From Candidatus Brocadiia bacterium (GTDB taxonomy: Bacteria > Planctomycetota > MHYJ01 > JACQXL01 > JACQZI01): DNA of 39,658 bases. A program made the translations under genes and the position numbers. Under the pieces are notes generated by a model. The model was not told where the DNA came from, searched no databases, and saw only the letters and a list, made by a program, of their open reading frames with translations. The stretch spans positions 72,170 through 111,827 of the forward strand of contig JAGVQN010000085.1 in NCBI GenBank assembly GCA_020051675.1. Reading direction: 5' to 3'. Every line of letters starts with the position of its first letter. Position 1 is the first letter of the stretch. This document shows, piece after piece, positions 10,621 through 35,776 of the stretch.

Positions 10621-10636
10621 TCCCGCCCAGGCGGGA
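10621..10636. repeat. Small palindrome TCCCGCCCAGGCGGGA within a TGACCAATT-flanked 21-bp insert
   Basis: TGACCAATT at 10607-10615 and 10637-10645 flank the 21-bp segment. Confidence 0.85.
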
Positions 10637-14335: not shown

Positions 14336-14515
14336 AATCGCTGCTATATCTATATTATCAGCTATATTTCGCCTGTAGTTTAGCAAAATTTCAGTAAAAA
14401 AGTAATTTTTATGACGGCAATCGGGCGTTTTTAACCGTCCCTGACCCTATCTGAAAGTCGTTTGGAAACATCTCGCTTTTATTAATTGACTTTTAGCCCT
14501 ACCGGAAGTAATATA

Positions 14516-15247
14516 ATGAGTTTAGAAGTCGATATGAACGATTTGATTGTCCCGGAGCATTTGAGGAATAACCTGGATTTAATCAGGAAGAGGGTTGAAA
14601 AATCGGCTCGTAAGGTAAATCGAGACCCTTCGGAAATCAAACTGATAACCGTTACTAAATATGCGGATATCGAAACCATCGGGCATTTACCCAGGCTTGG
14701 GCTCTTTGATTTAGGTGAAAATAAGGTGCAGGAACTGGTAAAAAAAGCAGGGGTATTGCCTAAGTCCGTGACCTGGCATATGATAGGCCATATGCAGACT
14801 AATAAAATAAGGAAAGGACTGCCTTTTTTTGATTATATGCACTCGCTGGACAGTTTACATCTGGCAGAGGCGCTGGAAAGCGAAGCGGGCAGAATCAATA
14901 AGTATTTAAATGTTTTTATCCAGCTTAATGTGAGCGGGGAGGAATCAAAATACGGCATAAAACCGGAGGAACTCTTTAGTTTTTACGGGAAGCTAAAGGA
15001 TTATCCGCGCCTGAAAATTATCGGGCTGATGACCATGGCTCTGGAGAAAGATAACCCTGAAGAATCCCGCCCGGTATTCCGGAAACTTCGGGAATGCCGC
15101 GACGAACTAAGGGCAAAGCTGCCTGAAGAAACGAGAAATGATTTTTGCCACCTGTCAATGGGCATGACTCAGGATTATGATATCGCGATAGAAGAAGGCG
15201 CGACGTTCATCAGGATTGGAACGGCGCTGTTTAAAGAGGTTGCATAG
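14516..15247 (+). CDS. YggS family pyridoxal-phosphate-binding protein
   Basis: LITVTKYADIETI, GENKVQEL, WHMIGHMQTNKIRK, LSMGMTQDYDIAIEEGATFIRIGTALF; start uncertain (14516 or 14534). Confidence 0.93.
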   Translation: MSLEVDMNDLIVPEHLRNNLDLIRKRVEKSARKVNRDPSEIKLITVTKYADIETIGHLPRLGLFDLGENKVQELVKKAGVLPKSVTWHMIGHMQTNKIRKGLPFFDYMHSLDSLHLAEALESEAGRINKYLNVFIQLNVSGEESKYGIKPEELFSFYGKLKDYPRLKIIGLMTMALEKDNPEESRPVFRKLRECRDELRAKLPEETRNDFCHLSMGMTQDYDIAIEEGATFIRIGTALFKEVA

Positions 15248-15250
15248 AAG

Positions 15251-15786
15251 GTTACAGAAAGTTACAAGAAGTTACAGAAGGTTACGGGGAAGGTTATCCC
15301 GCCAAGGCGGGATTACGGGAGATTACGATGGGGTTGCCAAAAAGAGAAGCGGCATATGAAAAGTTGAAGTTTTATCAGGATATTTGTAATATCAGGCAAC
15401 AGGTTTATCAGATTACGGAAAGGTTTTCTAAAATACACATGAGGTTGGTTTCTCAGATGCGTGATGCCGCACGTAGTTCCAAGCAAAATATCCGGGAGGG
15501 ATATAAGAAAGGAACAATCGGCGAATTTATACACAGTATTAATATCAGCCGCGGGTCATTGGAGGAATTAAGCGGTGATATTGAAGATTGTTTTGAGGAT
15601 AAATTGATTAATAAAGAAGAATTTGATGGTTTATCAAGTCTTTTAAGAAGTGCTGATTATTTATCAAAACGTTATCTTTTTTCGCTCTATAAGATGAAAG
15701 AAAAAGGAACATGGAAAACACCCGGCGAGAAAGCTAAAACGTAACTTTTGTGTAACCTTATGTAACCTTGAGTAACTTTCTGTAAC
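15251..15786 (+). mobile_element. Putative mini mobile element carrying a four-helix-bundle gene
   Basis: Perfect 15-bp terminal inverted repeats GTTACAGAAAGTTAC / GTAACTTTCTGTAAC; further GTTAC iterons at ~10-bp phase inside both ends; ATAGAA at 15244-15249 and 15787-15792. Confidence 0.75.
15328..15744 (+). CDS. Four helix bundle protein (23S rRNA intervening-sequence protein family)
   Basis: YQDICNIRQQVYQITERFSK...LVSQMRDAARSSKQNIREGYKKGTIGEFIHSINISRGSLEEL...DCFEDKLINKEEFDGL matches the IVP family pattern. Confidence 0.9.
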   Translation: MGLPKREAAYEKLKFYQDICNIRQQVYQITERFSKIHMRLVSQMRDAARSSKQNIREGYKKGTIGEFIHSINISRGSLEELSGDIEDCFEDKLINKEEFDGLSSLLRSADYLSKRYLFSLYKMKEKGTWKTPGEKAKT

Positions 15787-15796
15787 ATAGAACAGT

Positions 15797-18670
15797 ATGC
15801 CTCGTTTAATCGTAGAAAAAGGGCCTGACAAAGGCAAATCTATCCGCATCAGCGGAAACGATACCATTGTCATCGGGCGGGAAACCACCGCCAATTTGCG
15901 CTTAAGCGACATCATGGCTTCACGGATGCATTTCCGGATAGAGTTCCGTGCGGATGGCGGATACTACCTTATCGACTTAAACAGTATGAACGGCACCTTT
16001 GTCAACGGTCAGAAAATTAAAGAGCGTGTGCTGAAGTTGGGAGATAAGGTGCAAATCGGCGAAACGCTTTTTACTTTCATGGGAGATATTGAAGCCCAGA
16101 AACAGGGTCCCATCGGCCAGACCATCGGCGGATATACCATTATGGAACGTGTCGGCCGCGGCGGAATGGGCACGGTTTACAAAGCGCTCCAGATTTCCTT
16201 AAATCGAGTGGTTGCTTTAAAGCTTCTCTCGGATGAACTGGTAAAGGATAAAACGTTTATCAACCTTTTTGTGCAGGAAGCCCGAGCGGCTGCCCAGCTT
16301 AACCATCCCAATATCGTCCAGGTTTATGATGTCGGCTCCGAAAAGGACGTATACTTTTTCTCTATGGAGTATGTGCCGGGGGCGAGTCTCCAGGATATAC
16401 TTTCCAAACGTAAGAAACTGCCTCCGGAAGTGGCTGTCGGCATAGTTTACCAGGCGGCCCAGGGGTTGGAATACGCCGAAAAGAAAGGCATTGTCCATCG
16501 CGATATTAAGCCTGATAATCTTATGATGGGGGAAGACGAGGTGATCAAAATAGGCGACCTCGGCCTGGCGAAAAGCCTGAAGGCTCCTTTCGCCGAAGAG
16601 CAGGCAAGCAGTGTTTTTGGTACGCCTCATTACGTTGCCCCGGAACAGGCAACGGGAAAGCCGGTCGATCATCGGGCGGATATCTATTCGCTCGGCTCCA
16701 CTTTTTACCGCATACTTACCGGCATCACCCCCTATTCTGGATCGAGTGTTAAAGAAATTATCACTAAAAAAATCAAGGATGATCCCACACCTCTTAAACA
16801 ATTAGAACCGGGTTTGTCCGGCGAACTCAGCCGGATGGTGGATAAAATGATTAGAAGGAATCCGGATGACCGTTTCCAGACTTTTTCCGAAGTCCTGAAA
16901 GCATTGGAAACGATTAAAAGCGGAGCGGTCAGCACGCGGGAGTCGTCCGTACCGGACGACCTGTCAAAAACCGAAATAGTTAAAGAAGAAGAACCCCAGC
17001 CGAAAAACCTGATGGATAGCATTGTGCTGCCGGTAATACTGACCGCGCTTTCCGGGGTAAGCCTGTTCCTTATCGGCTGGCATTATTATAAAAATATCAG
17101 GCTCGGCGCCGAACCTCCGATTGTTTTCCCGGACGATTCGCAGCTGACTGAAAAACAGATTGTTGCTGAAATAGATAAGCTGGAGGCTGATTTAAAAGGT
17201 GTTTCGCAAGACGATGTTGAGTTTCTTATGGATCTCATCACGCGCCACGATAAATTAACCGAAAAATGCCGCACCGTAAAATTATCGCTGCCGGCGCAAG
17301 TAAAACTGGCCGACCTGGGCAAACGCTTTGACCAAATAAGCGAACCGGTCAGGGAAAAATACAAGGAAAAGAAGTCATCCGAGTTTTTTGCCAGGCTGGC
17401 GGAAGAAACAAGCCGCGAACGTCAGCAGATTATTACGCTTGCCAAAACGGGCGATGTTGATTCCTATATAAAAAAATGGATAAAGGGATGGGAAGATTTC
17501 AAACTTAAATATGCCGGCACGGTTTCTGTCGCCCTTGCGGACGAACAAATACGGCAGGTAAATCTGTTTAAGGCGCGTATAGAAAACAGCCGGGGAAACT
17601 ACGAAAAACTCCAGCCGCGGGTAAGAAACGCCATTAAAGAACATCGCTTTAAAGAAGCCCATGACATGGTTACCGGTTTTATAAATGACGAAAAATTCCA
17701 GGATACTTTATATAATATTATCGTTTCAGAACTGCTTATTGAGATAAAAAACCGCGGATTGGATGATTTCTATGAAATCAAACGCGAAGCGGCTAAGCTG
17801 AAAGGGGAGGAAAAGCTGGAGGAAGCCAAACAGTTGCTGGTGAAAAGACAAGGGTTTTATGGCGACCCTGAAATAGAACAATTGGTTCGGGGTGATCTGG
17901 ACGATATCGAACAGATAATCAAGAGCCTGAAAGATACAGAGTATAGAAAACAGCTGGAGGCAGACGAGGGGATATTCTATTTGACTTATCCTGATGTTCT
18001 GATGATTATCCATATGAGCGATTTGAGTAATCCGGATAAACTCCTTAAAGATGCGGATTCGCTTTTGACTAAAATCAATGTTAAAACGAACGAGTATAAT
18101 GATCGGAAAAAAGATATTATTTATGAGCTAACCTGTGAAGTTATGATAATGAACCGGCTAAAACTCAGCGCCGAGCAATTCATAGGGAAAAAATCTTTCA
18201 GGAACCAGAAAATAAAGGGTATTACCAACAGCGGGGTGGTTTTGCAGGACGGAGAACTCGTTGCCTGGAGTAAAATTTCTTCCCCGGAACTCTTTGATTT
18301 AATCAGCAAAGGATGGAAACTTTCCAGTAGCGAAACCCTTAAACTGGCAGTCCTTTGCCTTAAAAGAGGCGGTATGATAAAGGAGGCGAAGGCTCTCTTG
18401 AATGCAGCCTTGCAGAATAATCAGGATCAAAACGAAATCGACACCATCAATAAATATTTAGGCAAGCTCGAAGAAGCCGTTCGGGTAAGGGAAAAAGACG
18501 CTGATTTTGTTTACCGGCAGGCAAATAAGCAATATAATGATTTTAATTATTACAATGCGTTGAAAAATTATAATCTTCTTAAATACCGATTTGCTGATAC
18601 TGTATTATACAACCAAGCGGAGGCTCATATCAGTAAGAAAATCAGCGAGATTGAAGAAAGGCTGAAATGA
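15797..18670 (+). CDS. FHA domain-containing serine/threonine protein kinase, one predicted TM segment, long C-terminal helical region
   Basis: FHA IVIGRETTANLRLSD...MNGTFVNG; kinase GRGGMGTVYKA, HRDIKPDNLM, GDLGLAK, GTPHYVAPEQ; TM VILTALSGVSLFLIGWHYY. Confidence 0.95.
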   Translation: MPRLIVEKGPDKGKSIRISGNDTIVIGRETTANLRLSDIMASRMHFRIEFRADGGYYLIDLNSMNGTFVNGQKIKERVLKLGDKVQIGETLFTFMGDIEAQKQGPIGQTIGGYTIMERVGRGGMGTVYKALQISLNRVVALKLLSDELVKDKTFINLFVQEARAAAQLNHPNIVQVYDVGSEKDVYFFSMEYVPGASLQDILSKRKKLPPEVAVGIVYQAAQGLEYAEKKGIVHRDIKPDNLMMGEDEVIKIGDLGLAKSLKAPFAEEQASSVFGTPHYVAPEQATGKPVDHRADIYSLGSTFYRILTGITPYSGSSVKEIITKKIKDDPTPLKQLEPGLSGELSRMVDKMIRRNPDDRFQTFSEVLKALETIKSGAVSTRESSVPDDLSKTEIVKEEEPQPKNLMDSIVLPVILTALSGVSLFLIGWHYYKNIRLGAEPPIVFPDDSQLTEKQIVAEIDKLEADLKGVSQDDVEFLMDLITRHDKLTEKCRTVKLSLPAQVKLADLGKRFDQISEPVREKYKEKKSSEFFARLAEETSRERQQIITLAKTGDVDSYIKKWIKGWEDFKLKYAGTVSVALADEQIRQVNLFKARIENSRGNYEKLQPRVRNAIKEHRFKEAHDMVTGFINDEKFQDTLYNIIVSELLIEIKNRGLDDFYEIKREAAKLKGEEKLEEAKQLLVKRQGFYGDPEIEQLVRGDLDDIEQIIKSLKDTEYRKQLEADEGIFYLTYPDVLMIIHMSDLSNPDKLLKDADSLLTKINVKTNEYNDRKKDIIYELTCEVMIMNRLKLSAEQFIGKKSFRNQKIKGITNSGVVLQDGELVAWSKISSPELFDLISKGWKLSSSETLKLAVLCLKRGGMIKEAKALLNAALQNNQDQNEIDTINKYLGKLEEAVRVREKDADFVYRQANKQYNDFNYYNALKNYNLLKYRFADTVLYNQAEAHISKKISEIEERLK

Positions 18671-35689: not shown

Positions 35690-35776
35690 TGAGATTGCTT
35701 CAGTCTCCCGCCAAGGCGGGATTCTTCGCAATGACCGTCATTGCGAGTCCCGACGTAACGTCGGGGCGTGGCAATC
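35690..35776. repeat. REP/BIME-like inverted repeat (gagattgctt...cgcaatgac / gtcattgcgag...gcgtggcaatct) with a small palindrome in each arm
   Basis: GCAATGACCGTCATTGC centre; arms contain TCCCGCCAAGGCGGGA (35706-35721) and TCCCGACGTAACGTCGGGG (35748-35766). Confidence 0.85.

What the first reader, a model, noticed from the sequence alone, without database searches (positions are those of the whole stretch)
15244..15792. Compact mini-element: four-helix-bundle gene between iteron-built terminal inverted repeats and ATAGAA direct repeats
SEEN: the left end GTTACAGAAAGTTAC... (15251) and right end ...GTAACTTTCTGTAAC (15786) are perfect 15-bp inverted repeats. Each is extended inward by GTTAC iterons at 10-11 bp spacing (15251, 15261, 15271, 15281; 15741, 15752, 15762, 15772, 15782). 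ATAGAA lies immediately outside on the right and one G away on the left. Excision would rejoin GTTGCATAG-AACAGT-ATGCCTCG, a tight yggS-kinase operon junction. KNOWN: four-helix-bundle (IVP) ORFs occur in 23S rRNA intervening sequences and resemble the DGR accessory protein Avd. No transposase is present. INFERENCE: a non-autonomous or self-recognising insertion in which the helix-bundle protein may bind the helically phased GTTAC array.
Basis: partly seen in the sequence, partly recalled or inferred. Interest (0 to 1): 0.88.

Follow-up and report, generated by a model that had tools for sequence, protein, structure and literature searches.

The report
Mobile IVP gene with iteron arms
A half-kilobase insertion carrying one small ring-forming protein gene between mirrored arrays of a short DNA word belongs to a very widespread, apparently undescribed class of mini-elements in which each protein family keeps its own word, which suggests that the protein recognises the ends of its own element.

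Summary
Observation confirmed. The element (15250-15786) has 35-nt inverted arms of GTTAC iterons around an IVP/S23p gene (PF05635), inserted between yggS and an FHA-kinase gene. A same-genus genome has only 24 nt there; two other copies in this genome also have empty sites in relatives.

The pattern is general. Of 166 IVP loci from many phyla, including Archaea, 85% have such inverted arrays against 3.4% of 618 control ORFs. The word differs between loci (period 7 commonest, then 8, 9, 10) and follows the protein: three homologues 66-75% identical, with synonymous sites saturated, all keep GTTAC, and each right arm has five copies. Arms are not matched in register and show no G-U bias, so recognition sites explain them better than a conserved hairpin. 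TSDs are not general and 10-bp helical phasing is exceptional. Thirty-nine elements lie inside host genes (DNA methylases, DnaE-type polymerase); 38 leave the host frame open straight through.

Best reading: a mobile 23S-IVS-type element at a non-rRNA site, whose pentameric protein recognises its own iterons. The insertion chemistry is unknown: no transposase was found, and closely related hosts rich in elements have no detectable reverse transcriptase.

The parts
15250..15786 (+). Whole IVP/iteron element, inserted between yggS and an FHA-Ser/Thr-kinase gene
   Evidence: Inverted arms; absent at the same junction in same-genus genome G001, where yggS stop and kinase start are 24 nt apart
15251..15285 (+). 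Left arm: four GTTAC iterons at 10-nt spacing (15251, 15261, 15271, 15281); a weaker fifth unit GTTAT at 15293
   Evidence: in four homologous elements the left arm has 5, 5, 5 and about 8 units
15311..15326 (+). Two GATTAC variants of the iteron (15311, 15321) running up to the start codon
   Evidence: Sequence
15293..15316 (.). Short palindrome GTTATCCCGCC-AA-GGCGGGATTAC inside the element
   Evidence: I11; CCCGCC-N-GGCGGG occurs 3 times in the window against 0.01 expected
15328..15744 (+). IVP/S23p gene, 138 aa, four-helix bundle; GGGAG ribosome-binding-like site just upstream
   Evidence: PF05635 2e-18; TIGR02436 6e-16; AlphaFold pLDDT 87.8, four helices; best PDB fold match XCC0516 2GSC; dN about 0.2 with dS saturated against homologues
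15741..15786 (-). Right arm: five GTAAC iterons (15741, 15752, 15762, 15772, 15782), the first overlapping the IVP stop codon
   Evidence: five units in the right arm of all four homologous elements
15244..15249 (+). ATAGAA, left copy of a possible target-site duplication; overlaps the yggS stop codon
   Evidence: Sequence; such repeats are not above background in the class
15787..15792 (+). ATAGAA, right copy
   Evidence: Sequence
14486..15247 (+). Upstream host gene: yggS-type (Ala_racemase_N) protein
   Evidence: PF01168 2e-14
15797..18670 (+). Downstream host gene: FHA domain plus Ser/Thr protein kinase
   Evidence: PF00498 4e-18, PF00069 1e-55

Best explanation
This is a compact mobile element of the kind known as intervening sequences (IVS) in 23S rRNA, sitting here at an operon junction. 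It consists of one gene, for a pentamer-forming IVP/S23p protein, between two inverted arrays of a short word. Shown: it is an insertion absent from relatives; the gene is under purifying selection; homologous elements at other sites keep the same word while synonymous and spacer sites are randomised; the same architecture with other words brackets most IVP genes surveyed. Inferred: each IVP family recognises its own iteron, probably on the G-rich strand in single-stranded form (ssDNA or RNA) wrapped around the pentamer with about one iteron per subunit, and binding at both ends brings the ends together for the insertion and possibly excision of the element. The strand-transfer chemistry is unknown and may be supplied by host replication or recombination. 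Insertion seems tolerated where it does no harm: after stop codons in operons, and inside genes only where the host frame stays open.
For: Empty sites for three of the four arrayed copies in this genome. Inverted iteron arrays at 85.5% of 166 IVP loci against 3.4% of controls, across more than 20 phyla and Archaea, in Gammaproteobacteria (20 of 26) and on cyanobacterial plasmids. Word follows protein: Mantel rho 0.204 against a maximum of 0.130 in 999 permutations, sequence outside the arms 0.032; the window homologues L057, L250 and L251 all have GTTAC arms at two further sites while the next homologue (32% identical) has GGGAACTAA. Purifying selection, dN about 0.2, dS saturated. Four to five units per arm is commonest, median 4.7 in both arms. 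G exceeds C in the inward-reading strand in 108 of 114 left arms. No in-register arm matching (0 of 72) and no G-U bias (277 against 273). Two about 90% identical copies with the same 8-nt word at unrelated sites of one genome (G033: L078, L140).
Against: No binding or movement was observed directly. Protein-word coupling could partly be plain descent; the Mantel correlation is modest and the sequences are not independent. No general target-site duplication, so the insertion mechanism has no signature. No catalytic domain other than the IVP family was recognised in the protein. In RNA the arms of this element do form a long stem (z=-7.7). Amplified IVP families in G034, G023 and G099 spread without arrays, so arrays are not needed for every IVP gene to multiply. 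Some elements are shared at the same site by related genera (for example L022/L038, L035/L040), so movement is not frequent.
Confidence: 0.68

Rival explanations
1. RNA-level intervening sequence: the arms are kept because the transcript folds into a long stem around the IVP gene, which RNase III cuts out of the polycistronic mRNA as it does for 23S rRNA IVSs.
For: The element folds with z=-7.66 and the arms pair; the Coxiella 23S IVS has a 28-bp terminal stem cut by RNase III and tandem GACAGAT heptamers before its S23p gene (PMC4990558).
Against: No excess of G-U-compatible changes between the arms (277 against 273) and no matching in register beyond the shared word. In 38 of 39 host genes the frame runs open through the element, which cutting or splicing would not require and cutting would defeat.
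Confidence: 0.17
2. MITE-like non-autonomous element moved by an ordinary transposase acting in trans on the terminal inverted repeats.
For: Terminal inverted repeats, small size, possible 6-bp ATAGAA duplication, presence/absence between relatives.
Against: The ends differ in sequence and period from element to element within a genome and covary with the IVP protein. No general TSD. The word is shared by elements in different families of the order.
Confidence: 0.05
3. Retro-element: the IVP is an Avd-like partner of a reverse transcriptase that mobilises the element through RNA.
For: Fold similarity to Avd (4DWL, 8UB7; TM about 0.57-0.60); insertion of IVSs into rRNA would suit an RNA route.
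Against: No RVT_1 match in G001 (14 IVP copies, 97% complete), G003 (6), G055 or G114; the only one in the window genome is on another contig, C63.
Confidence: 0.06
4. Not mobile in any active sense: an autoregulated host gene whose protein binds operator iterons on both sides, gained and lost like other accessory genes.
For: Arrays abut the start and stop codons; purifying selection on the protein; some sites conserved between genera.
Against: Empty sites at several junctions, near-identical copies at different sites of one genome, insertion inside unrelated genes. Operators would not need an inverted, mirror-image array at the far end.
Confidence: 0.04

Closest known systems
Intervening sequences (IVS) of 23S rRNA with S23p/IVP ORF (Coxiella, Leptospira, Brucella)
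   Same: Similar size (428 nt in Coxiella against about 537 nt), same protein family, complementary ends enclosing the gene, sporadic distribution; Coxiella IVS even has tandem heptamers (GACAGAT) before the gene (PMC4990558)
   Different: Here at a protein operon junction, not in an rRNA helix; arms are iteron arrays of a family-specific word; RNase III excision not shown and not supported by arm evolution
XCC0516 of Xanthomonas campestris (PDB 2GSC), the S23p-family homopentamer
   Same: Profile E=2e-33, best fold match, four-helix bundle; 2GSC is a pentamer
   Different: Function unknown there. A relative 58% identical in a gammaproteobacterial genome has GGGAATC arms (L296), the same word as the heptamers reported in Xanthomonas (PMC4692102)
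Avd, accessory protein of diversity-generating retroelements (4DWL, 8UB7)
   Same: Same fold; Avd is pentameric
   Different: No RT near the element, no template/variable repeats looked for or described here; sequence identity about 6-8%
Short intergenic heptamer repeats: cyanobacterial STRR, TAACTGA of Beggiatoaceae (PMC4679880), GGGAATC of Xanthomonas (PMC4692102)
   Same: Tandem 7-nt words in intergenic sites, partly as convergent inverted pairs
   Different: Reported without any link to IVP genes; the link is proposed here, with solo arrays as possible relics
MITEs and insertion sequences
   Same: Small, inverted ends, insertion polymorphism
   Different: No transposase, no fixed end sequence, no general TSD

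Membership tests
IVP/S23p protein family (PF05635, TIGR02436) | Profile match over the curated cut-off | tested here: met
   67 bits against 33.8; 58.7 against 24
IVP/S23p protein family (PF05635, TIGR02436) | Four-helix bundle of the 2GSC type | tested here: met
   AlphaFold pLDDT 87.8; 2GSC best hit, TM 0.62-0.67
IVP/S23p protein family (PF05635, TIGR02436) | Homopentamer | not testable with these tools
   Known for XCC0516 and Avd; inferred only
23S rRNA IVS element | Lies in 23S rRNA (helix 9, 25 or 45) | tested here: not met
   Lies between yggS and an FHA-kinase gene
23S rRNA IVS element | Complementary ends enclosing an S23p ORF | tested here: met
23S rRNA IVS element | Excision from the transcript by RNase III | not testable with these tools
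   No RNA data; arm evolution gives no sign of selected pairing
23S rRNA IVS element | Sporadic presence among relatives | tested here: met
   Empty site in G001
DGR (Avd-type accessory gene) | Associated reverse transcriptase | tested here: not met
   Single RVT_1 in the genome, on another contig (C63); none in G001 with 14 copies
Transposase-dependent IS/MITE | Fixed terminal inverted repeat shared between copies | tested here: not met
   Copies in the same genome have different words and periods
Transposase-dependent IS/MITE | Target-site duplication | tested here: inconclusive
   ATAGAA at this element; class-wide no excess
Transposase-dependent IS/MITE | Transposase encoded by the element | tested here: not met
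   The IVP gene is the only sense-strand ORF of 60 aa or more; one search lists two antisense ORFs of 73 and 83 aa, not searched for homologues

The most novel reading that the evidence does not exclude
A transposase-free class of mobile element, spread over Bacteria and Archaea, in which a small pentameric ring protein reads a family-specific iteron (about five per end, one per subunit, on one strand) to recognise and move its own element; it enters operon junctions, rRNA and, as a two-frame insertion, the inside of protein genes that are translated straight through it. The orphan heptamer repeats of cyanobacteria, Xanthomonas and Beggiatoaceae would be its relics.
Probability: 0.4. Interest if true: 0.93.

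Novelty: new variant of a known kind. Interest (0 to 1): 0.8.

Why it matters
'Four helix bundle protein' genes are present in very many environmental genomes (9 of 9 in this order, 22 of 23 in the class, 48 of 99 sampled in the phylum) and have no assigned function. Tying them to family-specific inverted iteron arrays makes a long-standing question testable: what S23p/IVP proteins and 23S IVSs do, and how IVSs move. It also offers one explanation for several unexplained heptamer repeats, and shows elements that insert into DNA methylase and polymerase genes while leaving the host frame readable, a form of two-frame coding I found no report of in the papers searched.

Tried and rejected
Helical phasing as the rule: rejected, period 7 is commonest. 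TSD as the rule: rejected. Conserved hairpin or RNA stem as the selected feature: not supported by G-U asymmetry or by the register test with TRF-defined arms; an earlier unit-shuffle test suggested some register matching, but it used arms chosen by the alignment itself and was replaced. RT in trans: disfavoured. Y1 transposase in trans: not detected in G055, which carries an element. +2-frame openness as a latent property of all elements: rejected; intergenic elements have near-expected stops (5.4 against 6.1 per 100 codons, the window element has 13), only host-internal ones have none. Literature searches found no report linking IVP genes to inverted iteron arrays; only open-licence papers were searched. 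Phages: no match with one IVP query.

Full report
Observation. The left arm has GTTAC at 15251, 15261, 15271 and 15281; the right arm has GTAAC at 15741, 15752, 15762, 15772 and 15782; the outermost 15 bp are perfect inverted repeats inside a 35-nt pair at 86%. Details not in the finding: the first right iteron overlaps the IVP stop codon; a fifth left unit (GTTAT) and two GATTAC variants continue to the start codon; a GC-rich palindrome of a type found three times in the window lies inside. The gene is a clear member of the IVP/S23p family, predicted as a four-helix bundle with 2GSC, the pentameric XCC0516, as the nearest solved structure.

It is an insertion. The genome (1.2 Mb, 57% complete, G000) has a same-genus relative G001, 97% complete. 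There yggS and the kinase gene are 24 nt apart, with no IVP and no array. Two other IVP copies of G000 also have empty sites: thrS-infC in G001, G004 and G006, and the L003 site in G006 (23 nt) and G004 (overlapping stop and start). A homologous window-type element was found in only 4 of 246 sampled genomes of the phylum, the window's own included.

The architecture is general. In the window's own genome three of the four other IVP genes also lie in inverted arrays, but of different words: TAGATTG (7), AATGCGG (7) and a weaker AT-rich one. Gammaproteobacteria and cyanobacterial plasmids agree. Arrays have period 7 most often, then 8, 9 and 10. Three families (G034, G023, G099), amplified to 13-25 copies, have no such arrays.

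The word goes with the protein. The nearest homologues of the window protein (L057, L250, L251; 66-75% identity among the four, dS saturated, dN about 0.2) lie in other genera, at two further sites, and all have GTTAC arms with randomised spacers; the right arm has five units in all four elements, the left 5, 5, 5 and about 8 (counted by eye). The next homologue, 32% identical, has another word. Over 109 arrayed loci, protein identity and word similarity are correlated (Mantel rho 0.204; highest of 999 permutations 0.130), while sequence outside the arms is not (0.032). Descent contributes, but with synonymous sites saturated the persistence of the word points to selection, most simply for recognition.

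What is recognised. If pairing between arms were selected as RNA, changes compatible with G-U pairs should exceed the others; they do not (277 against 273). Arms defined independently of each other are not matched in register beyond their shared word (0 of 72 below 0.05). So repeated recognition sites fit better than a kept hairpin, although this element would fold as RNA (z=-7.7). The inward-reading strand has more G than C in 108 of 114 left arms, a strand bias that a protein reading one strand would explain. Period 7 would not keep sites on one face of a DNA helix. Median 4.7 units in both arms and five in the window family would suit one unit per subunit of a pentamer, as TRAP reads RNA repeats around a ring (from general knowledge). 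The ring model is inference.

Movement. Two about 90% identical IVP elements with the same 8-nt word lie at unrelated sites, both just after a TGA stop, in one genome (L078, L140). No transposase is encoded. RVT_1 was not detected in G001 (14 copies), G003, G055 or G114, and Y1 transposase not in G055. Direct repeats at element ends are not above background; the ATAGAA pair here is the longest of 104, about what such a survey would be expected to yield. How strands are joined is unknown.

Inside genes. By homology of both flanks, 39 loci have the element between two halves of one host gene: an MmeI/Eco57I-type methylase with a DUF559 domain, a DUF1156 methylase, an N6/N4 methylase and a DnaE-type polymerase. 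In 38 the host frame is the same on both sides, always +2 to the IVP frame, in the same orientation, with no stop; the exception is L155. Synonymous shuffling predicts 1.4 stops per 100 codons in that frame, so openness appears to be selected. In L203 and L219 the IVP frame itself has stops while the host frame is open. These are four host families with many homologous loci, so the number of independent insertions is smaller. Host read-through is inferred; no protein data were available.

Known relatives. The closest known kind is the 23S rRNA IVS. The Coxiella IVS has a 28-bp terminal stem and tandem GACAGAT heptamers before its S23p gene (PMC4990558). Heptamers with convergent pairs in Xanthomonas (GGGAATC, PMC4692102) and TAACTGA repeats in Beggiatoaceae (PMC4679880) were described without IVP genes; a GGGAATC-armed IVP element exists in a gammaproteobacterium (L296), and G001 has what looks like a solo array at thrS-infC. 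I found no paper linking these. The window element is filed as a variant of the IVS kind because it fails the rRNA-site criterion; it is not a DGR, IS or MITE by the features tested.

Limits. Confidence is high that this is an insertion with meaningful arms, moderate that the protein recognises them, low for the ring model and for any particular insertion chemistry.

Noticed in passing
L145-L154, L157, L159-L162, L164-L167, L171-L174, L176, L187, L191, L200, L203, L205, L206, L209, L216, L218, L219; L079, L083, L092: IVP elements inside host genes (DNA methylases, DnaE-type polymerase) with the host frame open through the element, always +2 to the IVP frame (38 of 39 homology-defined cases).
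   Followed up: yes
window 10622-10635, 15298-15311, 35707-35720; also beside the right arm of L002: Repeated CCCGCC-N2-GGCGGG palindrome, 3 in the window against 0.01 expected; looks like a REP-type element of this genome.
   Followed up: partly
L225 (G001 thrS-infC junction): Empty site for the L002 element carries a short solo heptamer array of another word (AGTAGCGAGTAGAGAGTAGCGA on the minus strand), possibly a relic of a different element.
   Followed up: partly
L105-L133 (genomes G034, G023, G099): IVP genes amplified to 13-25 copies, about 72-92% identical over 500-900 bp, without iteron arms: a different way of spreading.
   Followed up: partly
L203, L219: IVP frame broken by stops inside a DUF1156 methylase gene whose own frame remains open.
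   Followed up: partly
L308 (Picosynechococcus sp. PCC 7003 plasmid): IVP element with 8-nt arrays between cas10/cmr2 and a cmr3-family gene; such insertions may explain why '23S rRNA IVP' appears among CRISPR-linked domains in PMC10910872.
   Followed up: no
L305 (Nostoc edaphicum plasmid pNe_5): IVP element with AGGGAGT arrays between the genes for ribonucleotide reductase beta and alpha subunits, in opposite orientation to them.
   Followed up: no
L078, L140: The right end has a G-rich array followed by its inverted copy, a hairpin-like variant of the usual right arm.
   Followed up: no
L241, about 1986-2634: At the site of the L001 element, genome G004 has a different insertion of about 650 nt without an IVP match.
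   Followed up: no
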